Source of the DNA: SAR116 cluster bacterium AG-321-K23
Lineage (GTDB): Bacteria > Pseudomonadota > Alphaproteobacteria > Puniceispirillales > Marisalimonadaceae
Assembly (NCBI GenBank): GCA_003284565.1
Contig: QBXO01000004.1
Span: 1 to 64,000 of the forward strand
Direction: 5' to 3'
DNA: 64,000 nt
How positions within the stretch are numbered: the first letter of the stretch is position 1; each line of letters begins with the position of its first letter. Below are positions 3,441 to 38,679 of the stretch, in pieces. The position numbers and the translations under genes are program-made. The notes beneath the pieces are model-generated. The model was not told where the DNA came from. It saw only the letters and a program-made list of their open reading frames with translations, and ran no database searches.

Positions 3441-3455
3441 GACTTTTCCTTTTAT

Positions 3456-4100
3456 TTAGGATTTTTCTTCTTCTGGAGTTACGTCAATATCGCGAGCTTT
3501 GCCAATTATTTTAGTTGGAGAATTACAATTTTTCATGCACGGATTCCCACTTATGTTAGCAATATCTGGTCTTGGATCAGGCATAAGAAACCCTTCCACA
3601 TTTGGCATTTTTATTTTACCAATATTTTTATCATTTAAAATAAAATCTTCTTCAATAATTTCGTTCATATAAAGGAGATAAGCGACTACTTGATATGTTT
3701 CATCATGAGTTAATGACTGAGCCACACCAAAAGGCATTGCACGATAGATATAATCATACATAGTCGATGCGTAAGGCCAATAACTTCCTGTTGTTTTAAC
3801 AGGATCATGAGTATCTAGACTATCCTCACCACCAACTAATTCTGGCCACCTATCAAGTCCTTCTCCAAAATCTCCGTGACATGAAGCGCATTGTTCAGCA
3901 TAAACTTCTTCACCAATTATCGCGCTTCCACTTCCTATTGGTGCCCCTAATCCATCAGGTCTTACATCAATATCCCAACCAGCGATTTCTGTCTTAGTTG
4001 CAATCTTACCAAGATTAAACTTTCTTTCCTCAGCAATGAGTAAATTAGGAATAATTACTATTAATAAAAATATTAATAATTTTTTAACCAAGGCGAACAT
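3456..4100 (-). CDS. soxD: Cytochrome c SoxD-like, short single-heme form
   Basis: Signal peptide, CASCHGDFGEG heme motif, located between soxC and soxB. Confidence 0.8.
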   Translation of the reverse strand: MFALVKKLLIFLLIVIIPNLLIAEERKFNLGKIATKTEIAGWDIDVRPDGLGAPIGSGSAIIGEEVYAEQCASCHGDFGEGLDRWPELVGGEDSLDTHDPVKTTGSYWPYASTMYDYIYRAMPFGVAQSLTHDETYQVVAYLLYMNEIIEEDFILNDKNIGKIKMPNVEGFLMPDPRPDIANISGNPCMKNCNSPTKIIGKARDIDVTPEEEKS

Positions 4101-5445
4101 TGTCTACCGTTCCATCTTTATTAACTTTCCAAGTTGCAATGGAATTATTATGATATATTGAATTAACTCCTCTTAATTTTTGAAGTTCATTAATAGTTGG
4201 CTGTACATAATTTGTTTCATCAATAGCTCTTGATTGAACTAGAAGCTCTTGTCCATTCCATTCAAATGGTAGTGTAAATCGTGCTAAGCTTTTGCTCATT
4301 ACAGGGTCATGTAATTTAGCAGTCTGCCAGTTTTTCCCTCCATCTAGAGAAACATCAACACGTTTGATTTTTCCTCTACCTGACCATGCAAGACCTCTTA
4401 ATTGATGAATACCTTTATGTAAAATTGATTTTTCTGGACTGGGTGATGTTACAACAGATTTTGCGTCCATTACCCAGGTAAACATCCTTGCTTTTCCGTC
4501 TGGTAACAGATCTGTGTATTTTGAAGTTTCTTCTCTTGTCATATATGGCATATCACCAAATTCTAATCTTCTTAACCACTTAACCCACATATTTCCTTCC
4601 CATCCGGGAACAACAAGCCTTGCAGGATATCCTTGCTCGGGTCTTAAAGCTTCACCATTCATAGCCCACGCAATAACGCAATCATCCAGTATCTTTTCAA
4701 TTGGTATTGATCTTGTCATACCTGAAGAATCACTTCCCTCAGCCAGGACCCACTTAGCCTTTGATTTTAGACCTGTTTCTAAAATTAAATCTGATAATTT
4801 AACACCTGTGTATTGGACATTATGAACCATGCCAAAGGTATATTGACAACCATTAAGTTGTGATCCTTTCCATTCCATTCCTCCATTAGCGGCACATTCT
4901 AAAAAATAAAATTTATTGGTTTGTGGAAATCTTTTCAAATCATCTAATGTGAAAATCATTTCTCTATCAACTAAGCCATTGATCATAAGCCTATAATCTC
5001 TAGGGTTTATTACTGATACCCCACCATGATGTCTTTCAAAACATAAGCCATTCGGTGTCACTATACCTTCTAAGTCTTGAATGGGAGTAAAGTTTACAGA
5101 TGATTCAGTGCTAGCTGTCAACCATTCAACATTTCTTCGAATTACATTATTTTCAAATTCAGAAGGCATTCCATAAGGATTAGCATCAACTCCAACTCCT
5201 AATTCAGAAGTCCATTCTGGTACATTAGGTGGCAAATTATTAGGATTTGTTTCTTGTGAGTTACTAATTTTAGAAGTAAGAGCAATAGCACTTAATGATG
5301 CTGTGCCTACTAGTAACTGTCTACGATTTAGCCTTATTTTTTTATTTTTGTTTTTTCCCAAAGCAAAACCTAATAGTTTAAGAAACAGACATTTTTCTAG
5401 ACATTGAATATTTTTCACCATTATCGTCAGTCCACTCAAAGTCAA
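4084..5445 (-). CDS. soxC: SoxC sulfane dehydrogenase (molybdopterin oxidoreductase of the sulfite oxidase family); start uncertain because the ORF overlaps soxZ
   Basis: NRRQLLVGTASL Tat signal, FLECAANGG, GYPARLVVPGWEGNMWVKWL motifs. Confidence 0.88.
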   Translation of the reverse strand: MTLSGLTIMVKNIQCLEKCLFLKLLGFALGKNKNKKIRLNRRQLLVGTASLSAIALTSKISNSQETNPNNLPPNVPEWTSELGVGVDANPYGMPSEFENNVIRRNVEWLTASTESSVNFTPIQDLEGIVTPNGLCFERHHGGVSVINPRDYRLMINGLVDREMIFTLDDLKRFPQTNKFYFLECAANGGMEWKGSQLNGCQYTFGMVHNVQYTGVKLSDLILETGLKSKAKWVLAEGSDSSGMTRSIPIEKILDDCVIAWAMNGEALRPEQGYPARLVVPGWEGNMWVKWLRRLEFGDMPYMTREETSKYTDLLPDGKARMFTWVMDAKSVVTSPSPEKSILHKGIHQLRGLAWSGRGKIKRVDVSLDGGKNWQTAKLHDPVMSKSLARFTLPFEWNGQELLVQSRAIDETNYVQPTINELQKLRGVNSIYHNNSIATWKVNKDGTVDNVRLG

Positions 5446-5704
5446 AAGTTCCTGTTTCTTTTGCCTTAAAAGGGAAAGCTATATATGGATTTGTTGATAT
5501 AGAGGGCTCTAAATCCATTCCAAAGACTTGTTTGCCATTAAACTTAACTAAAAATTTGTTAATTATTCTTTTGGGAATATTTTTACCATTTTTGTCTTTC
5601 ATACGCCCACTATGCATTGGATGTCTTATAAGTGTTTTTATTTCGATAATTTCATCAACAGACGCTTTTTTTGGAACTTTCCCTCTTGGTTTAATCTTAG
5701 ACAT
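5378..5704 (-). CDS. soxZ: Thiosulfate oxidation carrier complex protein SoxZ
   Basis: KTLIRHPMHSGRMKD and FEWTDDNGE, typical of SoxZ; adjacent to soxY. Confidence 0.9.
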   Translation of the reverse strand: MSKIKPRGKVPKKASVDEIIEIKTLIRHPMHSGRMKDKNGKNIPKRIINKFLVKFNGKQVFGMDLEPSISTNPYIAFPFKAKETGTFDFEWTDDNGEKYSMSRKMSVS

Positions 5705-5719
5705 ACCCTATCTCCCCTT

Positions 5720-6193
5720 TTAACCGCCACAACCGCCAATTGTTACTTTTACTTTTGATTTTGTCATTGCAAATTTTCCATTATTATATTCTGCCAATAA
5801 ATATACGTTTTGGGTTTTTGACAATCTCATTCTAGTTGTGGCAGCGCAAGCACCCATATCAGTACTAAAAGAGAACTTAGCTACGTTAGGTGCTGGATTA
5901 CCATCTGCAAACAAATATACTGTTTTCACAAAATCATCCTTTGTCATAGGACTTTCAATATCAAAACTTACTTTAACTTGGTTTCCATTTTCAGCAATCT
6001 CTGGAACATCTAAAAATAAGTCAATTTCTTCAACATTGTTCTTACTTATTTCTTTAATTTTTTGTAAAGCAAGATTAGGTTTTGCTATTGCATATTTTGA
6101 AAATAATACAGTACTGGCAACACCACTCATCAAATAAATAGCATTTCTTCTTGAAATCGTTATCATTTTTTGACGTTTCATCAAAATCTCCAA
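5720..6193 (-). CDS. soxY: Thiosulfate oxidation carrier protein SoxY
   Basis: C-terminal KVTIGGCGG carrier-cysteine motif, Tat-like leader SRRNAIYLMSG. Confidence 0.93.
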   Translation of the reverse strand: MEILMKRQKMITISRRNAIYLMSGVASTVLFSKYAIAKPNLALQKIKEISKNNVEEIDLFLDVPEIAENGNQVKVSFDIESPMTKDDFVKTVYLFADGNPAPNVAKFSFSTDMGACAATTRMRLSKTQNVYLLAEYNNGKFAMTKSKVKVTIGGCGG

Positions 6194-23700: not shown

Positions 23701-26166
23701 AATTTCTTAGTATCTTCTGAATAACTTTGTTTTTTAAACAAAATCTTTTCTTCTGTTAAGTCAACAAACTCTCTTACCGCTGTTATACCATAAGAATGAC
23801 CTGCACCTTCCGAACGCTCCTTGAAAAGCCCAAGGATAGGGATGTCTTTATCATTATTTACAATTTTAGATCTTAAGTGCCAATCAAGAGAACTTTGAAC
23901 AATTGTTTTAAATCTCACCCCCCCAACAGGAGAAAACATGTTAGGAAAATATTTTTTTAATGAAGGATCAGACGTATCTAAATAATTAGGTTCAAAAAAT
24001 TCACCACCTGAGTAACTTTCTACAGTGCATAATCCAACCTTACCCATAGTTTTCATAAGTGATTTTTCAGAAGCTTTAACAAACTTGTAGTAAGCTGAAG
24101 TTTCATTTTGTGAATATTTTTCTTTTATTCTCATTTCAACACATAATGGGTAAATAGCAGCAGCTCCAAAACCTAGTGTGCACGCTATATGATGCGACGA
24201 ACAAATTTGACCACTCTCAACTATAATTGAAACATTAAATCGTAAACCCTCATTAATAAGACTTTGATTTATGGCTGAAACTATAAGAATTAATGGTATT
24301 ACCGCCTTTTTGGCATCAACATTGGTATCTGAAATTATAATTATTCCTCCACTAGATGATGCAAACTCGCATATATTTGAACAAATTTTTTCAATTTGAT
24401 CTTTTAAAATTCGTTCATTTTTTTGAGCGTTGTTATGATCAGGTTCATACAAAATTTCAAAATTTTTAATTGGAGTATAATTCTGGTTTTTAATTTTATT
24501 TAAATCGTCAAGTTTTAAAATAGGAGAATCTATTATTATTTGTGGAAACTTCTTATTTAAACTTTTAGTTTTAGATCCTAGTGATACCCTAAGTGTCATT
24601 CCATCCGCTTCTCTGATTGAGTCAAGAGGAGGATTAGTTACTTGTGCAAACTTTTGTGAAAAATATTTAGCCATACCACCTTCTTGATCAGACAATGCAT
24701 TAATTGCATTTCCATAACCCATAGCAGAAACTTTTTCTGCTCCAGTTTCAAGCATCGGATCCAAAAAAAATCTAAAAGTTTCTTGATTATGATGATAAGC
24801 AACGTATTTAGCTGAAAAATTATTAATATTATCTATTGAATTTTGACTACCATTAAATTGTTCGATTTGGTGCAGCTTAACGCTGCACTCATGTAAAAGT
24901 TTTTTATAATCAGTTTTAGAAGAAAGAAGTTTTAATGCAGCTTCTGTATTATATGTTTTTTGTTCTTTATGGTTGTAATATAGGATACCCCCTGCCTCTA
25001 TTCTTCCCCTAGAAATAATTTCTTCTTCTGGGAAACTTATTTGTCCTGCTTCTGACATAGCTGCTAAATAATCAACAGTTTCAATTGTTCTCAACGGTCT
25101 AAGACCTAGTCTATCAAGTCTAGCACCAATAACATTTCCGTCTCCAAATATAACAGCCGCTGGACCATCATTTTTTTCTTCAAATAATGAAAAATATTCA
25201 AACATTGCTATAATATCTTCAGATAAATTTTTGTCTTTCTCCCACGCTGGTGGCATCATAGAAATTACAGCAGAAACTATGTCTAATCCATCTTCAAAAA
25301 TTCTATTTTGTAAAGTTTGATCCAATCTACAACTATCAGATTGACCCTTTGGTCTTGTAATATTTTTATTCTTAGATCTATAGGCTGCGTTTTCTGATAA
25401 AATATTTTTTTTATTTGTATTTAATTCTCCGTTATGCGCTATCAATCTAAAAGGTTGCGCCATAAACGGATGAGGTTCAGTGTTTGTTGAAAACCTAGTA
25501 TGAAAATATAAAGAAAAAATCTTATGAGATTTGTTATTTAAATCTTTAAAATAAGGTATAATCTCATTTGATTTTAACCTACCTTTTAATACCTGTAGCT
25601 TTCTGGATAAGGAAAGAGGATACAACTCATCTAACTTCTTATCATTAAATGCTACTGCTTCAATGTCTAGTAAACATTGGTGTATAGCTTTATCTATATT
25701 TTTATCATTAATGTTTTGAATACTAAAAATAAATTGCTTTATAATTAGTTGAGACGATTGAGATATTTCATTCAAAACTGATTTATTTACAGGCACATCT
25801 CTTGATTTAATGAGTTTAAAGCCATTATTTTCTAAAGTTTTAATAATTAAGTTATTAGCGATTACTTTGTTAGCTGTATTTTTTGGGATGAAGAAATTGC
25901 CAACTACAAATTCTCCAAATTTTAACGTTTTGTTTGTGATTTTTGAAAAAAAAATCTACTGATAAATCAATTGATATTCCTGCACCATCTCCAATTCCCT
26001 CAGAAGACATCCCACCACGATGGGGAACTGAGCACAGAGCTTCATGGGCCTTTATTAATAATTCATGAGTTTGTTTACTATCTTTTTTTGTAATAAAACC
26101 GACACCACAACTGCTTTTTTCAATATTGTGGTCATATAGTAATACTGTTTGTTTTTTATTATTCAT
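20745..26166 (-). pseudogene. gltB: Glutamate synthase large subunit (GltB), frameshifted; ORF fragments 20745-25796 and 25870-26166
   Basis: N-terminal fragment has SSCGVGF; large fragment has LIAHNGELNTN, GEGGEHISRYGTIRASKIKQFASGRFGV, CVMAKNCNIKCPAGL. Removing one T from the T9 run near 25946-25954 joins the frames; span is 5422 nt = 3x1807+1. Confidence 0.82.
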
Positions 26167-26365: not shown

Positions 26366-26420
26366 TTTTGTAGGGATTCCCAATATCGAACCGGGAACCT
26401 TTGCAACACTGGTTTTTGAG
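26366..26420 (-). repeat. Degenerate att-like tRNA-Leu 3' fragment
   Basis: ttgtagggattcccaatatcgaaccgggaacctttgcaacactggtttttgag resembles the tRNA-Leu 3' part (about 9 mismatches in 53) and has related downstream sequence to the 28.2 kb copy. Confidence 0.8.
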
Positions 26421-26706
26421 TTGCTTTATAACACTTTTCAATAATCACTATAGTCAATTGTTACTAGACATTCCACCAATTGCAAATTGCTAGTTATTCT
26501 GTACTGTAAACACTATCAAGCCAGTTTAGTTGTTTTTCGTAAACTTTTTCGTACCTTTTTTAACAGTTTTGCAGAATAAGTTGACGATGATTTCTTAAAC
26601 TACTTGTCCGGGATTTTAAAAATATTTCCATTGGAACCTGATATAGATAATGTTTATGGAAATCGTGCAAAGTTTATAGAAGTTAAGTTATAGAGGTTAT
26701 ATTATC

Positions 26707-28026
26707 ATGTATCTTTTTAGAAAGTATTTCATAATTTCATTTATTGCTTATTTTATTTTAGGAGATTTAGCTCTCGCTAACTCAAATGAAAAAATAATTG
26801 TTTCGGATATTTCTATGCCCAAATATTTTTTTGCAGATCAAATCAATAAGACTTGTAAAATGAAAAAAGATACAAATGAATTTTACTCAAATAGTCTTTT
26901 TTCTGATTTTGATCTCAAAAAGAATAATAATTATCAATGGTTGGCAAAACTAAAGGATTATAATTGGGTAGAAGATCATGCCAAAAGAAGTGATAGTCTT
27001 GATGTTTTTTTTCATAAATTAACTGACAGAATGGAGTATCTACACGCTACTTTGGTTAATAGCTTAATTGACGGAACCATTGAAGTTCAAGCAGATAAAG
27101 CAATTGACTTAATGGTTTCTTGGGCAAAAGCAGATTTTATCATGCAAACAACTACAATTTCACAAATTAAGGAAATGATCAAGGCTGGCACTTTTTCATC
27201 TTGTTATCAAGGTAAAGGAGATGAAAGGGCTAAATGTCACTGGCATGCTGCACAAGAAGCAGCCAGATATGCTGGTCAATTTGGTATAAATGCTAACTTA
27301 GTTAAGCCTTACATGAATAAAAATGAGCTTGCAATAATTGAAAAATATTTCGTTTCCTTATATAAAAAGTATATTCATCCTTGGTATTTTTTGACTGGAG
27401 CTGGCTTAAAAAATATAAATTATGGCTTTTACCAAATGGGACATGGTGCAATTAGTGTTCTTGCATTTGCACATTGGAATAATGACAAAAAACTTGTTAG
27501 CAACACTTTTAAATCTACTTTAAGGCACATTAATACTTTGGTGCTCAAAGATGGTTTCATTAACAATAATAGCTTTAGAGGTGTAAGGGGTTATTGGTAT
27601 CACGGAACTGCACTTAACAATATGTTAGGAATTGTTGCATTAGCAGAAGAATACAATTATCCAGTTAGTGATAATATCCTTAACAAACTTACTGATGCTG
27701 TGAATTTTATGGATAAAGATGCTATAAAATACCTTAGTTGGTTAGAGAAACTTCCTAGAAAGAAAAGCTTTAGTGATGGTAAAGCTTACCTTAAACATAA
27801 TGGGGAAAATATTTACGTAGGGAATGCTAGTTGGAAACACAAAAATTCAAGAAATCATATGAAAAGTTCAGCATTGTTTTTAGATTATTTATCAGAAACT
27901 TATACTAAAGGAAAAATCAATAGAGATAGAAAAGAATACAAGATTTATAATTATAAAAGAAAGAAAACAGGCCTAGGTCTTAGTGATCAGGAGTTAGGTT
28001 TTAATCCTAAATGTATTTACAGATAA
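26707..28026 (+). CDS. Secreted alginate-lyase-like protein (tentative)
   Basis: Signal peptide; NNNSFRGVRGYWYHGTALNNMLGIVALAEE resembles the alginate lyase alpha/alpha-toroid family. Confidence 0.5.
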   Translation: MYLFRKYFIISFIAYFILGDLALANSNEKIIVSDISMPKYFFADQINKTCKMKKDTNEFYSNSLFSDFDLKKNNNYQWLAKLKDYNWVEDHAKRSDSLDVFFHKLTDRMEYLHATLVNSLIDGTIEVQADKAIDLMVSWAKADFIMQTTTISQIKEMIKAGTFSSCYQGKGDERAKCHWHAAQEAARYAGQFGINANLVKPYMNKNELAIIEKYFVSLYKKYIHPWYFLTGAGLKNINYGFYQMGHGAISVLAFAHWNNDKKLVSNTFKSTLRHINTLVLKDGFINNNSFRGVRGYWYHGTALNNMLGIVALAEEYNYPVSDNILNKLTDAVNFMDKDAIKYLSWLEKLPRKKSFSDGKAYLKHNGENIYVGNASWKHKNSRNHMKSSALFLDYLSETYTKGKINRDRKEYKIYNYKRKKTGLGLSDQELGFNPKCIYR

Positions 28027-28189
28027 AAAAAGTTTATGCACTTCCTTGATTTAAGGTTTTAACTTTAAATAAATTTAACACTCTTAATTTGCCTTTAGAT
28101 GTTAAACTTAAGCTGAGAAAGAAATAATTAAACTATTTAATTGAAATTACTAAGAAACTCGGGAAACGAAATCTACCTTAATTTATGAG

Positions 28190-28245
28190 GTTTGGTAGGG
28201 ATACCCGGAATCGAACCGGGAAGCCTTGCGGCACTGGTTTTTGAG
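28190..28245 (-). repeat. attL: 56-bp exact direct repeat of the tRNA-Leu 3' part
   Basis: gtttggtagggatacccggaatcgaaccgggaagccttgcggcactggtttttgag identical to 38592-38647, offset 10402 bp. Confidence 0.93.
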
Positions 28246-28385
28246 TTACTTGATGACACTTATGTATAATCAACATAGTCAACTTAATCGTTGTCTAACC
28301 TAGGATAATAATCACTACCCTTTAAACATTGTAAACAGAATCAAGCCAGTTTAGTTGATTTTCGTACCATTTTTCGTACCATATT

Positions 28386-29483
28386 TTAAGAAGTGTATGA
28401 AATCCATTTTTCGTATATTGAAATCATGTAATCATTTTTATTTGATTTAATTAAGATTTCTTTTGCTTTTCTAAAATATTTATTTGCTTCAAGTTTATTT
28501 TTATTCAAATTAGGCCAAGATAAAGATGCTTTACCTTTTAAAAATAACACTCGATGATATTCTTTTGCTTCTTTTAAATACTCTTCCGCTTCATTTAAAA
28601 AAACTAGTGCTTTGTCATAATTTAAATTTTTAAATTGATCTTCTGTATAAAAATCAATTGCCAATTTATAACACCTAAATTCCATACTTTTATTAATGCA
28701 ATTATTAGCAAATTTTATTGCTTTTTTAATATTAAAATAAGATTTAAAATTTTGAATATTTGCCTCTTTTAACCAATAATTAGCACTTTCTTTTTTTCCC
28801 TTTTTTAAATCACTTTTGTGAAGATTTATATAATCGAAATAAAGTTTATTACTAAATAAATTAGCTAACTCATAATCGGCATCTGAGTTTTTATTACTAG
28901 CTTTTGAAGCCTTAATTAAAAGAGATAATCCTTTATCTAAGTCTTTTTTTTCTGTCTTTAAATAGAAAATTTGTCCTAAGAAATACTTTGCTAGACTAAC
29001 CATTGCAGGAGGATATTCTTTTTCAGCAGATTTTTTTAACCAATTTAATTTTTCTGAATTATCCTTTGATATTTTCCATAATTCAAATTGAGCTTCACGA
29101 TTTTGTAATCTTGCAGATTTCAATAACCAATAATTTTTGTTTAAATTTGTTTTTTTAACAACAATAACTTTTGGGCAATCAAAAATTTTAACAAAATTTT
29201 CAAACACTTTAATGTAATTATATAATTTAAATGCAGCTTCTGAGTTGTTCTGTTCAGCAGATTTATAATACCATTCACACGAAGAATAGCTTCTCGAATT
29301 AGGAATTGAACCGTTAAAAATAGCATCACCAAGCCATAATTGTGCAGTTGGGTCACCATTCTTAGCATATACTATAATTTGGCTAGGCGACATTTTCAGT
29401 AAATCTTGTTTAGTTAAATTTTCACTATAAGAAGCTTTAGAAAAAACTAATGCGAGTAATATAATGTAGAGATTATTTTTCAT
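28386..29483 (-). CDS. Secreted Sel1/TPR-like repeat protein
   Basis: Signal peptide, repeated AxxxLxxxxxxG-like segments (GDPTAQLWLGDAIFNGS, WYYKSAEQNNSEAAFKLY, WLKKSAEKEYPPAMVSLAKYF). Confidence 0.65.
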   Translation of the reverse strand: MKNNLYIILLALVFSKASYSENLTKQDLLKMSPSQIIVYAKNGDPTAQLWLGDAIFNGSIPNSRSYSSCEWYYKSAEQNNSEAAFKLYNYIKVFENFVKIFDCPKVIVVKKTNLNKNYWLLKSARLQNREAQFELWKISKDNSEKLNWLKKSAEKEYPPAMVSLAKYFLGQIFYLKTEKKDLDKGLSLLIKASKASNKNSDADYELANLFSNKLYFDYINLHKSDLKKGKKESANYWLKEANIQNFKSYFNIKKAIKFANNCINKSMEFRCYKLAIDFYTEDQFKNLNYDKALVFLNEAEEYLKEAKEYHRVLFLKGKASLSWPNLNKNKLEANKYFRKAKEILIKSNKNDYMISIYEKWISYTS

Positions 29484-29527
29484 ATTTTAACTTTACTAAA
29501 TTTCCTTAATTAATTATATTGTTAGCA

Positions 29528-29587
29528 GGTATTTAATCAACCAACTTGTACGCCTTGGCATCCAGCCTAAAGTACTAAAGCGGAGGC
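29528..29587 (+). promoter_or_regulatory. Structured 5' leader, copy 1
   Basis: ggtatttaatcaaccaacttgtacgccttggcatccagcctaaagtactaaagcggagg; GTAC/GTAC outer and GGC/GCC inner pairing; ends at the RBS of the 29592 ORF. Confidence 0.55.
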
Positions 29588-29591
29588 ACAA

Positions 29592-29837
29592 ATGACTTCA
29601 AATAAATTATCAAAAAAAGATCAAGACTTTGCTAATGCAATGGCTACTAAGCTTCGTTTGAATAGAGAAAAACTTAAACAAACTTTAACCCCAGACGAAA
29701 AAATTAACCAACTTACTCCTGAACAAAGAGAACAGATTGGTGAATTTAGGTTATCAATTATTCGTGAAGGTCTAAAAGAATTTCCAGGTTTAGACCCAAT
29801 GGATGCACTTCAAATGTTAGAAGAATTTGGAGGTTAA
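29592..29837 (+). CDS. Small hypothetical protein (81 aa)
   Basis: ORF with RBS gcggagg; no recognised family. Confidence 0.6.
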   Translation: MTSNKLSKKDQDFANAMATKLRLNREKLKQTLTPDEKINQLTPEQREQIGEFRLSIIREGLKEFPGLDPMDALQMLEEFGG

Positions 29838-29860
29838 GAAAACTTTATAGTCAAACTAAA

Positions 29861-29918
29861 GGGTATTTATAAACCAACTTGTACACCCTGTCATAAAGAC
29901 AAAAGTACTAAAAAGGAG
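29861..29918 (+). promoter_or_regulatory. Structured 5' leader, copy 2
   Basis: ggtatttataaaccaacttgtacaccctgtcataaagacaaaagtactaaaaaggaga; same architecture as copy 1, inner pairing changed to GTC/GAC. Confidence 0.55.
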
Positions 29919-29925
29919 AAAAACA

Positions 29926-30117
29926 ATGGCTAAAATCGAATCTATTAAATATTTAGATAAAGATGACCCAATTTATAATGGTAGACCAACAATATCTTCA
30001 CACAATAATAAAGTAGAACTTGTAAAGTTAAATAAAGAAATGAGTAGAGCTGAAAAAGAAAAAGCTCTTACTGAAGCTTTAATCCGTCAAGGATGGAAAT
30101 TAGTGGAGGATAAATAA
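29926..30117 (+). CDS. Small hypothetical protein (63 aa)
   Basis: ORF with RBS aaggag directly after leader copy 2; stop overlaps the next start. Confidence 0.55.
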   Translation: MAKIESIKYLDKDDPIYNGRPTISSHNNKVELVKLNKEMSRAEKEKALTEALIRQGWKLVEDK

Positions 30118-30575
30118 TGGCATATTATGAATATGAATTTCCTCAACAAAAAATTTTTGAGGTTAAAGATTTACCTTCAATAAATAATTCTAATAAACTT
30201 TATATTGATAGTGAAAAACCACTTCAAAAAAACAGACCTAAAATAAAACCACAAAAGGTAATCTTTTTATTTTCAGTTGAATGGATGTGGTCACCTGCAC
30301 ATAACAGAGTAGATAGTTATTTTATTAATATAAAACCATCCAGGTATTATCTTTGGAATAGTTTTTTTGACTGCCATAGCTTTTCAGATTATTGGGATTT
30401 TATTGGATACACAGATAATAAAAAAGGTGATCTACACGAAATTTCTATGAACTTTATAAAAAAATACTGGGAAATTGAAGCCAAAGATTCATGTCTAGAT
30501 CATTTCCATGTCATTAGTATGGAGGGTTTGTTGAAAGTGAGTGATATAAAGTCTATTGGAAGAGATGTTTGGTAA
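30117..30575 (+). CDS. Hypothetical protein
   Basis: 152-aa ORF translationally coupled to the previous ORF (taATGg). Confidence 0.55.
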   Translation: MAYYEYEFPQQKIFEVKDLPSINNSNKLYIDSEKPLQKNRPKIKPQKVIFLFSVEWMWSPAHNRVDSYFINIKPSRYYLWNSFFDCHSFSDYWDFIGYTDNKKGDLHEISMNFIKKYWEIEAKDSCLDHFHVISMEGLLKVSDIKSIGRDVW

Positions 30576-30601
30576 GAGTTTTTTAAAATTGATTTTAAAA
30601 A

Positions 30602-31654
30602 TTAGTTAATGATCTGCATTAGATCATTATGGATGCTTTGCCAATTTTGGTCTAAATTGATAGACTTGATAGATACCTTACAGTCTCTCCAGATGAAGTC
30701 TTCATTCAGAGATTCTTCGCCTATAGGATTAGCATATAACAAAATCCCATGTATTTTTTTATTAACAACTAGTTCATCTTGCATATTCATCATGTAAGAA
30801 GTGATTTGACGTAAGTGTTCAGATTTAAATTTATCCTGACCATAAAAGCTATCTACTAAAGTTTTCTTATAGTATTTAGTATCTATTATAATCACCTCAT
30901 CTTTATTACTAAGTGTAATGTCAGTTTTTTGCTTTGGAACTAGCTTCAAATCCCCTCCGAGAGACTTAAATTGCCAGTCTAATTGTTCTGATGTTTTTAC
31001 TTTAAACTCAGATTGTTCATATTTATAAAAATTGCCTACAAATCTCTCAAAAATGTCTGACATTCTTACTTCGTCATCTAATATATCTTTGAATATATAG
31101 TTACCTTGTTTTTGATTAGGCATTTTCAAATTATCTAACATTTTACAAATTTCTATTGGTAATCTGTAATAGTTATTATTTTGAGACAATTGAAACTTTG
31201 AGAAATATGAACTCAAATTATCTTGAGTGTTTACATCATTAAAAAATTTTAAAATTGAATTAATTTCTTCTTTGAGGTGTTTCTTTAGCTTTTGATTTTT
31301 TAAAAGATTCAAGAAGCTTCTCTTTATAATTTTATTTAAAATACTATCTACTGATAATTCGGAAAATCTGCAGTAAAGCTTATTTGAAATTTGAAAATTA
31401 TTTTGAATACTTTTTTTAAAATCAATTTTACCTTTGATAAACTGTTCATTAATTAATTTTGGCTTATAGTCTTTATGTAAGCCTTTTTTTATAATTCTCT
31501 TAACTGACTTTAAAAGCATATTAGCCATTAAATTTGGCAAATCAGGACTTTCATCTATTTCTAACTTTAATGATCTGCCTTCATTAAATTTTTCCCATGC
31601 ATATAAAAATACATAATATAAATTCTGAATTTTAATGTGGTCTTGTATTATCAA
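30602..31654 (-). CDS. mcrC: McrC-like subunit of type IV (5-methylcytosine) restriction system
   Basis: C-terminal PD-(D/E)xK-like segment LVPKQKTDITLSNKDEVIIIDTKYYK; overlaps mcrB. Confidence 0.8.
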   Translation of the reverse strand: MIIQDHIKIQNLYYVFLYAWEKFNEGRSLKLEIDESPDLPNLMANMLLKSVKRIIKKGLHKDYKPKLINEQFIKGKIDFKKSIQNNFQISNKLYCRFSELSVDSILNKIIKRSFLNLLKNQKLKKHLKEEINSILKFFNDVNTQDNLSSYFSKFQLSQNNNYYRLPIEICKMLDNLKMPNQKQGNYIFKDILDDEVRMSDIFERFVGNFYKYEQSEFKVKTSEQLDWQFKSLGGDLKLVPKQKTDITLSNKDEVIIIDTKYYKKTLVDSFYGQDKFKSEHLRQITSYMMNMQDELVVNKKIHGILLYANPIGEESLNEDFIWRDCKVSIKSINLDQNWQSIHNDLMQIIN

Positions 31655-33627
31655 GATAACAACTCAGCTCTAAGCTCTTCAACTTTTTCAGGTCTATCAA
31701 AATAGTACTCTTCTAAAAGTGGAATAATTTGATTATCAATAACCTTCTTGTACCACTCAATACCATAAGTTAAGTCATTATTGGATGGGCAGAAAAAACT
31801 ATGACCAATACAGTAACCTGGCCCAAGTTCTAGGTTCTCATCTGAAATTTTTTGATTTATTGATTCCATGTTATTTATGATTTTATCTACAACAGTTGAG
31901 CTTACTTTTTTATCTAAAAGAAATTTTTTGAAATCAGGACTTGCAAACTCTGGCACAAAAGTAAAAAAAGAAAATCTACGTCTTAGAGCGTAATCAACAA
32001 CTTTTAAAGACCTGTCGGCTGTGTTCATTAGGCCTATAATGTGAATGTTTGAAGGAATATAAAATTTGTCGTCTAAGGAATATAAGAGCTTAATAGCATG
32101 CTCCGGGCCTCTCTTATTCTCTTCAATACTAACAAGAATTTCACCAAATACTTTTGTAATATTAGCTCTGTTAATTTCATCAATCATAATAACGTAATTA
32201 TTGTCAGTATCTTCTTTGGCTTTCTCACAAAAATTGACAAATTGGCCTGGAGAAAGCACAAATTTACCGTCATTGTTGGGCCTTATACCCATAATAAACT
32301 CTTCATAAGAATAATTTTCATGAAAAACTAAATTCAATTGTCTATTCACATCGCCAGCTATATACCGAGATATTTTTTTAGCTATAAATGTTTTTCCAAC
32401 ACCCGGTGGTCCTTGGATAATAATATTTTTTTTGATTTTGAGTTCTTCACAAATAGCTCTAAAGGTATCTTTAGAAAAAAATGTGTCTTTAATCATTAAG
32501 GAGATATCGTCATTATTTTCTAAAGAAAGTTCTGATGTTTCATTTCCAAAATAAAATTCGTTAATTTTTTTTACATAGTCAGTGTATTTTGTAATATTTG
32601 TAAGAGTTTTTGTTACTGCTCTATTTCCAAAAACTTCCTCATGATTCATCTCTTTTAAACTTAACCATTTGACCTTTCTAGTATGAGGATGATTTTCATC
32701 TTCTTGATATTCATAATCACCTTGAACTTCACCTGCAGCTAATAATTTTTTTGTTCCTTCTTTAACAAAAACTAAATCTCCATTTTTAACTGTCTTAACA
32801 AAATCAAAGCAACACAAAACATTATTTCTTGGTTTATTTTCCCTAGATGGTTCAAGCTCAATCATCTTATTCTCTATTTCTTGTTTTGTTTTGAATTTTG
32901 AGAGATCACCAATTTGCCATCCAATTGAAATAAAGTTTTGAGACTTAAATTCATCCCAATATACTGCTTGTTCACCAGCAGCAATTATCCAATAATTTTT
33001 TTCTGAAAAAACTTTTCTTAAATTAGAAGACACGCCCTTATCTAAAAGATTATCATAGCAATTAATCAAATCATTCAAATATGATTTAATTAAATTGTCA
33101 TCAGGCAATTCCGTTTTACTAATTAGCTTATGCATGCAAATACCTGGACCATACCTCATTGCAACACCGCCTGTTGCTGCCAGATCAAATTGTTCATGTT
33201 CAAATTTGAAATCAAATTTCTGCATTTTTTCAAAAAAAGGTCTAGCTTCAGTTGCTTTTTCTAATAGATATTCTGCACCACCTCTTCTCCCATAGTTATC
33301 TCCAGGACCAGTTATTCCTTGTCCAAAGCACAAATAAAACCCTGTCATATCATGTTTAAATAAAGCAACTATATAAAACCCATCTTTAGTATCCGTAGCT
33401 TCCTTCTTATTCAAAATTGAACAATGAGGGACTTGTGCCCAACTACCTTTTCCACAACTAACCTTTACGTCTAAATCATCTCTATCTTTTGTAATTTCTT
33501 CCTTTATCCAATCTCTTAATTCTTCAAAAGCTCTATAAGTTGGAAGATCACTTCCAAATGATCCACTTCTGTAGTCAGTTGGATAATTTAAAAATATTTT
33601 TTCAACAATAGATTTGAATTCATTCAC
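31651..33627 (-). CDS. mcrB: McrB-like AAA+ GTPase with N-terminal MrcB_N/DUF3578-like and EVE-like regions
   Basis: GPPGVGKTFIAKKI, VIMIDEINRANITKVFGEIL, MNTADRSLKVVDYALRRRF; N-terminal YLCFGQGITG...GGAEYLLEKA; EVE-like NGDLVFVKEGTKKLLAAGEV. Confidence 0.87.
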   Translation of the reverse strand: MNEFKSIVEKIFLNYPTDYRSGSFGSDLPTYRAFEELRDWIKEEITKDRDDLDVKVSCGKGSWAQVPHCSILNKKEATDTKDGFYIVALFKHDMTGFYLCFGQGITGPGDNYGRRGGAEYLLEKATEARPFFEKMQKFDFKFEHEQFDLAATGGVAMRYGPGICMHKLISKTELPDDNLIKSYLNDLINCYDNLLDKGVSSNLRKVFSEKNYWIIAAGEQAVYWDEFKSQNFISIGWQIGDLSKFKTKQEIENKMIELEPSRENKPRNNVLCCFDFVKTVKNGDLVFVKEGTKKLLAAGEVQGDYEYQEDENHPHTRKVKWLSLKEMNHEEVFGNRAVTKTLTNITKYTDYVKKINEFYFGNETSELSLENNDDISLMIKDTFFSKDTFRAICEELKIKKNIIIQGPPGVGKTFIAKKISRYIAGDVNRQLNLVFHENYSYEEFIMGIRPNNDGKFVLSPGQFVNFCEKAKEDTDNNYVIMIDEINRANITKVFGEILVSIEENKRGPEHAIKLLYSLDDKFYIPSNIHIIGLMNTADRSLKVVDYALRRRFSFFTFVPEFASPDFKKFLLDKKVSSTVVDKIINNMESINQKISDENLELGPGYCIGHSFFCPSNNDLTYGIEWYKKVIDNQIIPLLEEYYFDRPEKVEELRAELLS

Positions 33628-33818
33628 AATTTTTATTCCTCTAGTTTGTAAACATATTTCACATTAGTATATCCTAAGATATAATCTATCGATTTTAAAA
33701 CCTTTGCACAACCTATGTAGGTTATATCTACAGAGGTCACAATGTCGCAAGGGGTTAAGAATTGGAAAGTTTAGTACATTTTTGTAGTATAATATTAATA
33801 TATTTTTAAGGTCATAAA

Positions 33819-34421
33819 ATGGTTATCCGTTTAACAGACAAATATGTTCGTGAAAAAATGCTTAGAGAATATGTTTCTCAAAGTTGTGCTAGTAGAGAAA
33901 AAGGAAATGACATTCTTAACGAAAGGGATAATAGACATAGAGAACTGAATAAAGAATTTGGTTTTATGGATAAAGATGGGACTTTTGGTATAGGTTGTAA
34001 ATCTCACATAAACATAAAATACAAAAATGTTTATACGTGGATAAACGATAAAGCTTCAAAGGACTACAAAAATGCATGTGATGAGTTTAAAAAATGGGAA
34101 AAAACTCAAAAATTCTCCATTTATGAATATCTGTTTCTTCAAGATTTTAGTTTAGGTTATTATGAAACGTTAGATAGAGCATTATCAAAAGCAAAAATTA
34201 CAGATGGCTTAATATTTGATTCAATAACCATTCATGCAAACCATTTGGTTGGTAGAAAAGAAACAATGGATCAACTGAAAATTTATTTTGAGGCCAGAAA
34301 ATTGGAAACACATCATTATGAAAAATTTTTACAAATAAAAGTTTGGCACTTTAAAGAAAAAAAATTAATTAAAGATTATTATGCTGAATTAAAAAATATT
34401 GCATTTTCTAAATTTAATTGA
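33819..34421 (+). CDS. Hypothetical protein
   Basis: 200-aa ORF with no recognised motif. Confidence 0.5.
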   Translation: MVIRLTDKYVREKMLREYVSQSCASREKGNDILNERDNRHRELNKEFGFMDKDGTFGIGCKSHINIKYKNVYTWINDKASKDYKNACDEFKKWEKTQKFSIYEYLFLQDFSLGYYETLDRALSKAKITDGLIFDSITIHANHLVGRKETMDQLKIYFEARKLETHHYEKFLQIKVWHFKEKKLIKDYYAELKNIAFSKFN

Positions 34422-34443
34422 TTCATAAAAACAAAGATTAATC

Positions 34444-34488
34444 TGCACGCACAGTATCCCACCCCTAGAGGGTAGGCTTGTTCGTGCA
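34444..34488. terminator. Nested inverted repeat between convergent genes
   Basis: TGCACG...ACCC-ctaga-GGGT...CGTGCA overlapping the stop of the RepA-like gene. Confidence 0.4.
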
Positions 34489-35673
34489 CATGTAAAAATT
34501 ATCATCTTTTTCAATATAACCAAGGCTTAAAAGTTTATTTAATGATCTACTCTTTCTCATTCTGCTTGCATTCTTAGAAATATCCTCATCAAGTATATAC
34601 AAATCGAATTCTTCTTTGGTAATGCCTTGATTAATTAAATCATAAACCTTTATATCTTGATTATTAAGATGGTCACTTCTTTGATCAATTGGTTCAATAA
34701 TAGTTGTTCCATAATTACCAAAAGGAGCTGACTTTTGTACTATTTTATAATGTCCTTTTAAACCTCCCTGGGTAGCTCTAGATCGTTCTAACTCCCAAGT
34801 GCCAGTATCTTTACAGTTTTGCAGTTTAGTAATTCTTAAATGATGATCTACTGCACCCATAACACTTGAATGACCTCTTGCTCCTTTAGTTGGGTCTTTA
34901 CCAATGTGATGAATGAGAACAATAAGAGAGTTTGTTCTTTGCTGAATAATTTTAATATTCTGTAAAAAATGACTTAGTTCATTCTCTCTTAAATTAACGG
35001 AAGCCACAGTATCAAAAACGATCACTAATGGTAAGTTTTCATATTTATTTGAATGAAATTTATGGTTTAAAAATTCATTTATTTTTCTATCAAATCTATA
35101 GGGTATATCTGTCTCAACTTCAAAAGGTTCATCATTTAAAGTTAGATCTGTACAAACTTTATAATCATAATGACCTTTACCCACTCCTTCAATTCTCTCA
35201 GACAACCATTCTTTACTGTTCCATTGTTTAAATGGATGATCATCGAGATTAATTTGATATTCTCTAATAAATTCTTCAACTATATCCTCATCCATAATGT
35301 GTGTAATTACAGCTTCTAATTGCTGTTTGTCTTCTCTAGACAAATCTATTTGATCAGTTGTAGTTCTTATTAAATGTCCAGGAACCTTAAAAACTTCTTT
35401 AATATAATTTTTAATTCTTTCCATAGCTGATTGTTCACCATCACCGCACCAATAAAAAAGCTTACACTTAGATGTTTTCCTTCCAAAAAAATTTTGTCCA
35501 CTCATGCAAGAAAAAATTGCTTGTAAAACAAAAGTTGTTTTTCCTGATCCATAGTTTCCATAATAAAGACAAGTTCCTTTTTCAGGTAAAAATGTATCAA
35601 TTAAAAAAGATTGAGGATTGTGTTTTTCGTTTAGTAAATCATTTCCATTTTTAACAGTAAACTTATATGACAT
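34465..35673 (-). CDS. RepA-like AAA ATPase (RecA-fold, AAA_25-type) of a plasmid/phage-like replication module
   Basis: Walker A YYGNYGSGKTTF, Walker B LPLVIVFDTVAS, IVLIHHIGKDPTKGARGHSSVMGAVDHHLRI. Confidence 0.8.
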   Translation of the reverse strand: MSYKFTVKNGNDLLNEKHNPQSFLIDTFLPEKGTCLYYGNYGSGKTTFVLQAIFSCMSGQNFFGRKTSKCKLFYWCGDGEQSAMERIKNYIKEVFKVPGHLIRTTTDQIDLSREDKQQLEAVITHIMDEDIVEEFIREYQINLDDHPFKQWNSKEWLSERIEGVGKGHYDYKVCTDLTLNDEPFEVETDIPYRFDRKINEFLNHKFHSNKYENLPLVIVFDTVASVNLRENELSHFLQNIKIIQQRTNSLIVLIHHIGKDPTKGARGHSSVMGAVDHHLRITKLQNCKDTGTWELERSRATQGGLKGHYKIVQKSAPFGNYGTTIIEPIDQRSDHLNNQDIKVYDLINQGITKEEFDLYILDEDISKNASRMRKSRSLNKLLSLGYIEKDDNFYMCTNKPTL

Positions 35674-35786
35674 TATAATTCTGATTGTTCCTTATCTTTG
35701 TTGAATAATTTAAAATGTTCTAAGATATAATTTTTCTTCGTCATTTTTTTAAAAATATTTTTGTGACACCTCCATCTATGAGTAAA

Positions 35787-35806
35787 GGGTGGGAGGGGGG
35801 CAAGGG
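35787..35806 (+). other. Canonical G-quadruplex motif
   Basis: GGG-T-GGG-A-GGGGGG-CAA-GGG in otherwise AT-rich DNA. Confidence 0.6.
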
Positions 35807-35945
35807 TCACTTTTACTGGTTGTAATAAATTAAAATTTTTTTTATTGAGAACCATCGTTATTTAACTCACACTGAATATTGCGACCATTGTGAACTCCAT
35901 TTTTATCCAATGATATCAGTTGCTTAGTAACAGTAACTTTTTTTG

Positions 35946-35967
35946 TGGTACGAAAATGAACGTACCA
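35946..35967. promoter_or_regulatory. Inverted repeat TGGTACG-N8-CGTACCA
   Basis: Perfect 7-bp arms; same word as in the TTCGTACCA repeats at both element ends. Confidence 0.5.
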
Positions 35968-36065
35968 AACCATAAGTAGATAAGAAAAAAATAATGTTGA
36001 ACTAGGGAAGGAAGATACATTACGAGTTGCCTGGCTACACATATGTGAGGAGATGCTAAGCATAC

Positions 36066-36458
36066 TCATTTCCCCTCCCCTAGAACCCCACCGTTATGGG
36101 TAACATTTGGCAGACGTAAAGATGAGATCACATCAGTTCTTTGTACTTCTAATGGTGGAATTGGATCGCTTACTCTTGTAGGAATAAAATATCGATTACC
36201 TCTTTTGTAACCCCAGGGATGCTTCTTCCCTATAGGCTCTAAATCGATGATATATCCATTATCTCTAAGGATACCGATATTCCTGGTAACCAAAGCTCTA
36301 GAAACTCCTATAAGGTCTCCAAGGGTAGATTGATTGGGATAACAGATTTGATTGGCTGAAGTAAAACAACAAAGAGCTGACAATGTCCTGACTACATTAG
36401 GCTGAAGTCTAGGATCAGATACTGCTCTTGAAGGCATGATACTAAACTTCATTTTCAT
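36066..36458 (-). CDS. Winged-HTH DNA-binding protein of the element
   Basis: LSALCCFTSANQICYPNQSTLGDLIGVSRALVTRNIGILRDNGYI helix-turn-helix pattern. Confidence 0.7.
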   Translation of the reverse strand: MKMKFSIMPSRAVSDPRLQPNVVRTLSALCCFTSANQICYPNQSTLGDLIGVSRALVTRNIGILRDNGYIIDLEPIGKKHPWGYKRGNRYFIPTRVSDPIPPLEVQRTDVISSLRLPNVTHNGGVLGEGK

Positions 36459-36636
36459 TCTTAGTACCTTTAAGAATATGAGTATTAATTATGTTTGCTG
36501 GAAATCGTATATAATTTCCAATTCTGTAATGTGGCAAATTTCCTAATTTAGCTTGGGTATAAATATGTTGAGGAGTACAACCTATTCTCTTTGCCACCTC
36601 TTCAGCAGTTAATGGTCTTTCAACAGTATCTGTCAC
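36442..36636 (-). CDS. Excisionase/MerR-type HTH protein
   Basis: RPLTAEEVAKRIGCTPQHIYTQAKLGNLPHYRIGNYIRFP, typical of excisionase-family DNA-binding proteins. Confidence 0.8.
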   Translation of the reverse strand: MTDTVERPLTAEEVAKRIGCTPQHIYTQAKLGNLPHYRIGNYIRFPANIINTHILKGTKNENEV

Positions 36637-36720
36637 TTATTTCTCCCTAATTAAACTAATAACTTGATCAAACTATACTTAATATGTTATAGGGGTAAAA
36701 GGGGTATTTAAGGGGTTTAT

Positions 36721-37347
36721 ATGTTTACTGCTGAATTCAATATTGTTTGTAAATTAAAAGTTCATGAAAGTGGATATGAAATTGTAGATGGGAAAATTAG
36801 ACCTATACACAAGAACTCGAATACGACAGAGAAAATTTTTTCAAATAAAACTTACACAGAATTTATGGATCTAAATAATCATAGAATAGATCAAGTAGAT
36901 TTCGAAGAAAGGTTGATAGTATTTACTGACAGATGGGGAATGTTATCAGATGATATTTATGTTCAAGAAGTACTTGGATTGTTAGGTTCGTACTTAATGA
37001 TAAAAGATGATTTTCAAAAAATGAAAAAACCAACATCTAAATTAAATATATTAAAACCTACTACAAAGTTATCTTATCAATTTAGAAATAAAAAAATTTT
37101 ACCAACCTTTGAAGTTAAAACAATTGCAGAAGCTATTGAGCTAACCTTCTTTTTAACCTCTGAGTTGGAACAAGTAGAATACGTAACTTGCAATTACTAT
37201 AAAAATTATGGTCCTAGAAATGGATGCATGAAAAGATTTCCTTACAGACCAAATAAAAAGCATTGCTCTCGAGAATGTAAGGAAGCAGTTAAAAACGAAA
37301 AGAAGAGAGCAAAAAAAAGTCAAACTAACACATACGAAAGGAGATAG
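36721..37347 (+). CDS. Hypothetical protein with C-terminal CGNR-like zinc-ribbon
   Basis: CNYYKNYGPRNGCMKRFPYRPNKKHCSRECKEAVKNEKKRAKKS; immediately upstream of the integrase. Confidence 0.55.
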   Translation: MFTAEFNIVCKLKVHESGYEIVDGKIRPIHKNSNTTEKIFSNKTYTEFMDLNNHRIDQVDFEERLIVFTDRWGMLSDDIYVQEVLGLLGSYLMIKDDFQKMKKPTSKLNILKPTTKLSYQFRNKKILPTFEVKTIAEAIELTFFLTSELEQVEYVTCNYYKNYGPRNGCMKRFPYRPNKKHCSRECKEAVKNEKKRAKKSQTNTYERR

Positions 37348-37348
37348 T

Positions 37349-38461
37349 ATGGCTATAACTAAAATGAAGAATGGTCGTTGGAGGGTTAGTGTTTACCAAC
37401 CCAATGATGCACCAAGAATAAGAAAGGTTTTCAAAACTAGAGAAGAAGCTAGAAAATTTGAAACCATCACCAAAGGAGAATTAGCTCAAGGGAAAACTTT
37501 TTATACTAAAAAAGAAGACCCAGGCAATGAACTCTTTTCTAACTTTCTAACTAAATGGCACAATGGTAAAGAAAGTTCTGTTACCGAAGGTACTTTCAAA
37601 AGACTTGGTTATGACTTAAAGAATTATATTATACCAACTCTTGGTTCTATTAAGCTATGTGATATAAGTTACGATCACGCCATTCATTTAAGAAAAAAAA
37701 TGTTGGCTAAAGGGTTAGCTAAACAGACTATCAAAAATTGTGAAATAACTTTGAAGCAATCTTTAAGATTCGCAACAAGACAAAGAAAAATTCCTTTTTA
37801 TCCTTTAGAAGGTTTTGATCTTATCAAAGTTAATGATGCAAAGAAAGTAGATGCATTATCTGATAGTGATCAAGAAAAACTACTAGAAGTTTCTCGAGAA
37901 TATTCTGATAGAGTTAATGATCAAAGACGTTTCATCTTCTTCTATACTCTTCTAAATACTGGGATGAGATATGGAGAGCTTATTGGTCTTAAATGGATGG
38001 ATATAAATCTTGATGAAAAGTTATTAAAAATAGAAAGACAATGTATTTTTGTTGAGAGTGATTCTATTCCTAAGTTATCTATATTGAAGACTTTAGGTAG
38101 TGAAAGAGAAATTGCTCTTACAGATGAAGATATTAAGACTTTCAAAAAGTATAGAGCTTGGTTGTCAGAGATGATGTTACCTCAATCGGATACACCATTT
38201 ATTCCAAAACTAGATGGAAATCACCTGAATAAAAACTTTGGTAGAACAACCATGACAATTTTAACTAGAGAAGCTGGATTACCCTACTATGCTCCTCATG
38301 GTTTAAGACACACTCATGCTACCAATTTAGCAAACACAGAAATACCTATAAAATTGTTATCCCATCGATTAGGTCATGCTTCTGTAAAAACAACTATGGA
38401 TAGATACGCTAAAGTAAAGGCTAAAGCTTCAGTTAAGTATCTAAAGAAAGTCCAAAAGTAA
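37349..38461 (+). CDS. int: Tyrosine recombinase (integrase)
   Basis: TGMRYGELIGLKWMDI, HGLRHTHATNLA, LGHASVKTTMDRYAK; adjacent to tRNA-Leu. Confidence 0.93.
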   Translation: MAITKMKNGRWRVSVYQPNDAPRIRKVFKTREEARKFETITKGELAQGKTFYTKKEDPGNELFSNFLTKWHNGKESSVTEGTFKRLGYDLKNYIIPTLGSIKLCDISYDHAIHLRKKMLAKGLAKQTIKNCEITLKQSLRFATRQRKIPFYPLEGFDLIKVNDAKKVDALSDSDQEKLLEVSREYSDRVNDQRRFIFFYTLLNTGMRYGELIGLKWMDINLDEKLLKIERQCIFVESDSIPKLSILKTLGSEREIALTDEDIKTFKKYRAWLSEMMLPQSDTPFIPKLDGNHLNKNFGRTTMTILTREAGLPYYAPHGLRHTHATNLANTEIPIKLLSHRLGHASVKTTMDRYAKVKAKASVKYLKKVQK

Positions 38462-38594
38462 GATGCATATAGTGTCATCAAATACTCAATTTCGTACCAT
38501 TTTCGTACCACGTTTAGATAAATTAGAAATGTTGGTTGAATTGAAAATTACGAATAATCTTCCGAAATCGTTATCTACCTTTATTTGTGAAGTT

Positions 38595-38679
38595 TGGTAG
38601 GGATACCCGGAATCGAACCGGGAAGCCTTGCGGCACTGGTTTTTGAGACCAGCGTGTTTACCTATTTCACCATATCCCC
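38595..38679 (-). tRNA. tRNA-Leu(CAA)
   Basis: Reverse complement GGGGATATGGTGAAATAGGTAAACACGCTGGTCTCAAAAACCAGTGCCGCAAGGCTTCCCGGTTCGATTCCGGGTATCCCTACCA; class II variable arm, anticodon loop CTCAAAA, encoded CCA. Confidence 0.93.

What the first reader, a model, noticed from the sequence alone, without database searches (positions are those of the whole stretch)
28190..38647. Compact ~10.4 kb integrative element with a RepA-like module and no virion or conjugation genes
The element encodes an integrase, excisionase-like HTH, winged-HTH regulator, RepA-like ATPase, a zinc-ribbon protein, McrBC cargo, a Sel1-like protein and several small ORFs. No capsid, terminase, relaxase or T4SS gene was seen. 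The layout resembles phage satellites or integrative plasmids that depend on a helper for transfer, and may be an undescribed family in marine alphaproteobacteria.
Basis: partly seen in the sequence, partly recalled or inferred. Interest (0 to 1): 0.72.

Follow-up and report, generated by a model that had tools for sequence, protein, structure and literature searches.

The report
Helper-dependent SAR116 island at tRNA-Leu
A 10.4-kb piece of DNA that inserts into a transfer-RNA gene of a marine SAR116 bacterium appears to be a real mobile element that must borrow another element's machinery to move between cells, and its cargo includes a phage-defence system and two small genes that sit behind S-adenosylmethionine-sensing RNA switches.

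Summary
A 10,402-bp element lies between exact 56-bp repeats (28190-28245, 38592-38647); the right copy is in an intact tRNA-Leu(CAA). A close relative (G043) has the site empty. Int is full length, and paired arm-type repeats mark both ends. No terminase, capsid, relaxase or T4SS gene was found. The full layout int/Zn-finger | xis/HTH36/RepA recurs on a 10.43-kb element at recO in AG-910-B21; SAR116 relatives at tRNA-Leu and tRNA-Trp keep int, Zn, xis and HTH36 but carry an O-like initiator instead of RepA. It is laid out like a PICI/PICMI satellite but lacks their defining markers, so I file it as a new variant of helper-dependent integrative islands. Helper and transfer are not shown.

The parts
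28190..28245 (.). left att copy (displaced 3' part of tRNA-Leu), exact 56-bp repeat of 38592-38647
28358..28386 (+). pair of arm-type repeats TTTTCGTACCA, left end (inferred integrase arm sites)
   Evidence: 8 hits in window with up to 1 mismatch against 1.15 expected; kept at att ends in relatives
28386..29483 (-). Sel1-like exported protein (cargo)
   Evidence: PF08238 2.8e-4, below cut-off; 47% homologue in G029
29518..29588 (+). SAM-V riboswitch aptamer a, covering the SD of orf81
   Evidence: RF01826 31.3 bits, cut-off 41; supported by covariation over 23 aptamers
29592..29837 (+). orf81, small cargo gene under SAM-V a
   Evidence: 11 genomes of the order have it; no family match
29855..29921 (+). 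SAM-V riboswitch aptamer b, covering the SD of orf63
   Evidence: RF01826 43.3 bits, cut-off 41
29926..30117 (+). orf63, second small cargo gene, mosaic between cassettes (63-83 aa)
30117..30575 (+). orf152, overlaps orf63; often part of the cassette
   Evidence: 89-93% homologues in other cassettes
30602..31654 (-). McrC
   Evidence: PF10117 4e-33; PRK09736 3.9e-83
31651..33627 (-). McrB (MrcB_N + AAA_5)
   Evidence: PF12102 2.8e-28, PF07728 3.1e-22
33819..34421 (+). orf200, unknown
   Evidence: broken homologue in G029
34465..35673 (-). RepA-like AAA_25 ATPase (inferred replicative helicase)
   Evidence: PF13481 1.6e-14; PHROG helicase/primase families
35732..35830 (-). conserved sequence motif downstream of HTH36 (candidate origin, approximate ends)
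   Evidence: 284 nt after the HTH36 stop in window, G020, G046; 311 nt in AG-910-B21
36066..36458 (-). HTH36 winged-helix protein (inferred replication initiator)
   Evidence: PF13730 above cut-off; PHROG replication initiation 1e-4
36442..36636 (-). excisionase Xis
   Evidence: PF12728 1.5e-7, TIGR01764 above cut-off
36721..37347 (+). Zn-finger protein, divergent from xis, 1 nt before int (inferred master repressor)
   Evidence: position and fast divergence:
37349..38461 (+). tyrosine integrase
   Evidence: PF00589 6.8e-25, PF14659 2.9e-8; motifs TGMRYGE, HGLRH, LGH, DRY seen
38488..38515 (+). pair of arm-type repeats, right end
38592..38647 (.). right att copy inside tRNA-Leu(CAA)
38595..38679 (-). 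tRNA-Leu(CAA), intact host gene used as attB
26370..28189 (.). decayed older insertion: degenerate att 26370-26420, arm site 26505-26561, alginate-lyase-like gene 26707-28026(+)

Best explanation
It is a helper-dependent integrative island (a 'hitcher') built on PICI-like logic. SHOWN: Int is full length, the element sits precisely in tRNA-Leu(CAA) with the tRNA kept intact, and the site is empty in a close relative. INFERRED: Int recombines within the 56-bp tRNA repeat, using paired arm sites at each end, and together with Xis excises the island as a circle. The Zn-finger protein, co-oriented with int and divergent from the early operon, is the master repressor and sets the island's immunity or induction type. 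When repression is lifted, xis, HTH36 (initiator, acting at the conserved motif downstream) and RepA (helicase) are expressed and the circle replicates. Copies leave in a particle or channel made by something else, most likely a phage. Between transfers the cargo (McrBC; orf81 and orf63 under SAM-V OFF switches, probably orf152; the Sel1 protein) pays for the island's upkeep. Cargo, replication and repressor segments are exchanged between islands, and islands often lose int and stay behind as fixed cargo.
For: Exact att repeat and intact tRNA; empty site in G043; arm-type repeats at both ends, kept in relatives; full-length Int, and Xis above cut-off; syntenic int-Zn | xis-HTH36-RepA element of 10,428 bp with its own direct repeats in AG-910-B21; same core minus RepA in G020 and G046, where an O-like initiator replaces it; HTH36 changes mostly synonymous (28 synonymous, 4 non-synonymous codons against G020); Zn/xis segment at 50-55% DNA identity between int (92-99%) and HTH36 (82-97%) in window against G020; no virion or conjugation gene.
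Against: No direct evidence of excision, circular form, replication or transfer. No packaging or transfer site identified, no helper found, and no terminase in the 69% complete host assembly. RepA has no primase domain. The Zn protein has no recognisable DNA-binding fold. The complete module with RepA was found in only two places.
Confidence: 0.6

Rival explanations
1. A true phage satellite in the strict sense: packaged in helper virions, i.e. a SAR116 PICI/PICMI analogue or a VEIME/tycheposon member (a special case of the best explanation).
For: PICI-like gene order; integrase relatives with 95% coverage are mostly satellite or phage integrases, e.g. Streptococcus satellite Javan319, which also carries RepA; replication proteins resemble phage families.
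Against: Integrase identity is only 28-29%; no TerS, capsid or size-redirection gene; no DNA match to phages; no virion evidence because viral contigs did not answer.
Confidence: 0.35
2. A mobilisable element carrying only an oriT (iOriT), moved by a conjugative helper's relaxase and channel.
For: Elements with integrase and replication genes but no relaxase can move this way (PMC11389934).
Against: No oriT was sought with a model or found; no relative among plasmids.
Confidence: 0.12
3. A passively moved island (transformation, vesicles, generalised transduction) with int only for site-specific landing.
For: Cargo blocks without int persist at the site in six genomes at 92-95% DNA identity; cargo is shared with unrelated islands.
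Against: Dedicated xis and replication module under purifying selection would be unneeded.
Confidence: 0.15
4. A decayed prophage or immobile remnant.
For: Replication proteins resemble phage families; decayed neighbours exist at the site (G029, G006, G053).
Against: No virion relic; core frames are open; a syntenic element of near-identical size sits at recO in AG-910-B21, so this is a stable form.
Confidence: 0.07

Closest known systems
PICI / SaPI-type satellites (e.g. Streptococcus satellite phage Javan319)
   Same: Size about 10 kb; int at one end; divergent operon with xis-like and RepA genes; a gene in the repressor position that diverges faster than its neighbours
   Different: No packaging-interference genes (TerS, ppi, cpm-like) found; repressor candidate is a Zn-finger protein; integrase only 28-29% identical
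PICMI (Vibrionaceae; PMC10803314)
   Same: Minimal gene set; a gene abutting int; Xis of the PF12728 type accepted in the PICMI model; defence cargo
   Different: No primase (DUF3987/DUF5906), not at fis, RepA/HTH36 instead
Tycheposons and VEIMEs (marine)
   Same: tRNA-targeting tyrosine recombinase, cargo, no virion genes, cargo left at the tRNA
   Different: Not comparable here; no reference sequences held
IncQ-type replication module (RepA helicase + RepC initiator; from general knowledge)
   Same: Pair of a hexameric-type helicase and a wHTH initiator
   Different: No RepB primase, no plasmid match
SAM-V riboswitch (RF01826)
   Same: Same aptamer and SD-covering position; a translational OFF switch on binding SAM (PMC6061858)
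   Different: Described in SAR11 next to metY, mmuM and, behind SAM-II, bhmt (PMC2704228, PMC9481103); here two SAM-V copies serve two consecutive unknown genes on mobile islands

Membership tests
Integrative element (tyrosine recombinase type) | Intact integrase, flanking att repeats, empty site in a relative | tested here: met
PICI | int and divergent xis/rep operon at an att site | tested here: met
   gene order; compare
PICI | Packaging redirection genes (TerS, ppi or capsid-size genes) | tested here: not met
   no PHROG/Pfam match; unknown ORFs remain
PICI | Induction by a helper phage | not testable with these tools
   needs culture or induction data
PICMI | int + AlpA-type Xis (PF05930 or PF12728) | tested here: met
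   PF12728 32.0 bits, cut-off 27; model
PICMI | Primase PF13148/PF19263 and location at fis | tested here: not met
cfPICI / prophage | Capsid, portal, terminase genes | tested here: not met
ICE / iMOB | Relaxase (and T4SS for ICE) | tested here: not met
iOriT | oriT recognised by a helper relaxase | not tested
   no oriT model available
Tycheposon / VEIME | Recombinase and marker genes clustering with reference sets, presence in virions or vesicles | not testable with these tools
   no reference sequences; viral contigs did not answer
SAM-V riboswitch | Score above the Rfam cut-off, conserved pseudoknot, SD at the 3' end | tested here: met
   copy b 43.3 against 41 bits; copy a 31.3, below cut-off, supported by covariation in 23 aptamers: pseudoknot A-U/G-C and U-A/C-G/U-G, hairpin G-C/U-A; SD 5-7 nt before the start codon

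The most novel reading that the evidence does not exclude
The island carries, and spreads among SAR116, a SAM-sensing cassette: SAM-V, orf81, SAM-V, orf63/82, often orf152. Its genes are made only when cellular S-adenosylmethionine falls, by sulfur/methionine starvation or by a phage that destroys SAM. Because 5 or 6 of 12 cassettes lie beside restriction or methylation genes, the products may stop self-restriction when methylation fails, or act as a defence triggered by SAM loss. That would be a riboswitch wired into a mobile defence island.
Probability: 0.3. Interest if true: 0.8.

Novelty: new variant of a known kind. Interest (0 to 1): 0.6.

Why it matters
SAR116 is an abundant, little-cultured marine group (general knowledge), and how its genes move is largely open. 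The element gives exact ends, an empty site and a conserved core that make excision, induction and packaging directly testable with a PCR across attP or with virome reads. The Zn/xis swap gives a candidate satellite repressor that is not a standard HTH protein. The riboswitch cassette links mobile-island cargo to cell SAM level; one full-text search for riboswitch plus prophage plus anti-phage plus SAM returned no paper, which is weak evidence that this is undescribed.

Tried and rejected
Viral contigs: seven attempts failed. RepA against genome contigs: no confirmed relative. A hairpin as the reason for the conserved motif after HTH36: rejected, folding z-scores -1.2 to +0.8; the sequence conservation stands. 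orf75/orf60 after HTH36: probably not genes; the frame is not kept between relatives. First thought that 94-97% identical HTH36 meant recent transfer: rejected, the changes are mostly synonymous, so it is purifying selection. CGNR zinc-finger identity of the Zn protein: recalled, not supported by any hit. Plasmid origin: no match. Charybdis elements: different gene set. RepA structure: mean pLDDT 38.5, unusable. Distant HTH36 hits elsewhere in Alphaproteobacteria mostly lack the full module. One search was a meaningless pattern and is ignored.
Full report
WHAT WAS CLAIMED AND WHAT IS THERE. The exact 56-bp repeat 28190-28245 / 38592-38647 gives a unit of 10,402 bp. The right copy lies in an intact tRNA-Leu(CAA), 38595-38679 on the minus strand, and stops in the anticodon loop; the left copy is the displaced 3' part. 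A 24-base core of the repeat occurs only twice in the window with up to three mismatches, none expected by chance.

EMPTY SITE AND TANDEM REMNANT. G043, whose DedA protein is 94% identical, has gltB, then about 200 bp, then the same tRNA, then DedA. The window's left flank aligns to it up to ...TTTTTGAG and the right flank continues from there: a natural attB. The window's total insert is about 12.2 kb, not 10.4, because a degenerate third att (26370-26420) and arm site (26505-26561) bound a 1.8-kb remnant that keeps one gene with an alginate-lyase domain.

THE HOST. The window's own assembly is 1.8 Mb, 69% complete.

THE CORE MODULE. In order from the tRNA: int and the Zn protein (both +), then divergently xis, HTH36, a spacer of about 390 nt and RepA. 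AG-910-B21 has the full same order on an element of 10,428 bp (distance between repeats); the best repeat pair is 90 nt at 93% and reaches the 3' end of recO, and the cargo is a 1944-aa repeat protein. In G020 (same tRNA) and G046 (tRNA-Trp) int, Zn, xis and HTH36 are kept, while RepA is replaced by a second wHTH; the G046 copy matches lambda-O-like and other phage replication initiators. I infer that the slot after HTH36 is a replication slot. No left att was recognised for the G046 element, though its far end keeps the arm region at 88%. A sequence motif sits 284 nt after the HTH36 stop in window, G020 and G046 and 311 nt in AG-910-B21; it is my candidate origin, but the hairpin first suspected is not supported.

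A SWAPPED REPRESSOR-LIKE SEGMENT. Window and G020 share int at 92-99% DNA identity and HTH36 at 82-97%, but 36.7-37.3 kb (Zn gene and the gap to xis) is at 50-55%, about what unrelated AT-rich sequence gives in a forced global alignment, and xis is intermediate. Relatives of the Zn protein share position, cysteines and some N-terminal residues at 21-26% identity. In SaPIs the master repressor Stl holds the island silent until a phage protein binds it (PMC6695447, abstract). Position and divergence make the Zn protein the likely repressor; this is inference. The PICMI gene that overlaps int and is needed for excision (PMC10803314) is the alternative model for its role.

THE HOTSPOT. At the same tRNA, relatives show every stage: empty (G043), full (G000, G020), RepA and int joined by a deletion (G029), int C-terminal stubs (G006, G053). 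Six genomes carry a 4.4-kb att-bounded block of an amino-acid ABC transporter and an amidohydrolase (named from the sequence) at 43% GC against 33% nearby, 92-95% identical in DNA, with left arm sites in varying decay but no int. I read these as cargo left behind after loss of the int end.

CARGO AND RIBOSWITCHES. McrB and McrC are full length; an 84% DNA copy lies in an unrelated island (another integrase type, AlpA, tRNA-Ser) of G046. Two SAM-V aptamers precede orf81 (31.3 bits, below cut-off) and orf63 (43.3 bits, cut-off 41). Searching the family found paired hits about 333 nt apart repeatedly, each around an orf81 homologue. In 12 cassettes the aptamer precedes orf81, and in 11 the second aptamer was recovered before a second gene (the twelfth, in G055, was missed by my script, although paired hits are listed there). 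Pairing is kept by compensatory change at two pseudoknot positions and one hairpin position, and the SD lies 5-7 nt before the start. In the SAM-V crystal-structure model bound SAM hides the SD (PMC6061858), so these genes should be made when SAM is low. Neighbours within about 6 kb include McrBC (2), C5 methylase (2), MvaI/BcnI nuclease with Vsr (1) and an Mrr-type nuclease-helicase (1). Islands are rich in such genes anyway, so the link is suggestive only. orf81 was not found outside this SAR116 family in a 387-genome sample of the class nor in phages.

WHAT IT IS. The element works like a satellite or other hitcher: it has enzymes to integrate, excise and probably replicate, and none recognised to leave the cell. 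It fails the marker test of PICI (packaging genes), PICMI (primase, fis) and ICE/IME (relaxase). VEIME and tycheposon membership could not be tested. I file it as a new variant of helper-dependent integrative islands, and put 0.35 on a phage helper specifically. The weakest steps are induction and transfer, for which there is no direct evidence.

LIMITS. Genomes are incomplete single-cell assemblies, so absence counts are lower bounds, and amplification chimeras could mimic some remnants (G029). Protein-family calls name resemblance, not tested function. The phage-satellite rival is a special case of the best explanation, so those confidences overlap.

Noticed in passing
window 29518-29588 and 29855-29921; paired copies in L010, L090-L099: Double SAM-V riboswitch cassette around orf81 on many SAR116 islands, often beside restriction-modification genes.
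   Followed up: partly
L042, L044, L045, L047, L048, L049 at tRNA-Leu(CAA): 4.4-kb att-bounded cargo block (amino-acid ABC transporter + amidohydrolase), GC 43%, 92-95% identical across genomes whose DedA neighbours differ more; no integrase.
   Followed up: partly
window 26370-28189: Degenerate older att with one alginate-lyase-like gene left; G027 (L049) holds a 31% relative in its own att-bounded block.
   Followed up: partly
window 25796-26166: gltB is split by an apparent frameshift near its start (98-aa piece plus 1683-aa piece); assembly error or real is unclear. G018 (L093) reads through as one 1708-aa frame.
   Followed up: no
L029 11962-17796: 1944-aa protein with glycine/aspartate-rich nonapeptide-like repeats as cargo of the AG-910-B21 element.
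   Followed up: no
L007 15064-15750, L091, L092, L097-L099: ADP-ribosylglycohydrolase-like genes recur as island cargo, near the SAM-V cassette in five loci.
   Followed up: no
L009 (G089) 2032-5856: A different SAR116-order island with int, AlpA-like gene, primase-RepA fusion and an HTH36 homologue (45%): a possible full-primase cousin of the module.
   Followed up: partly
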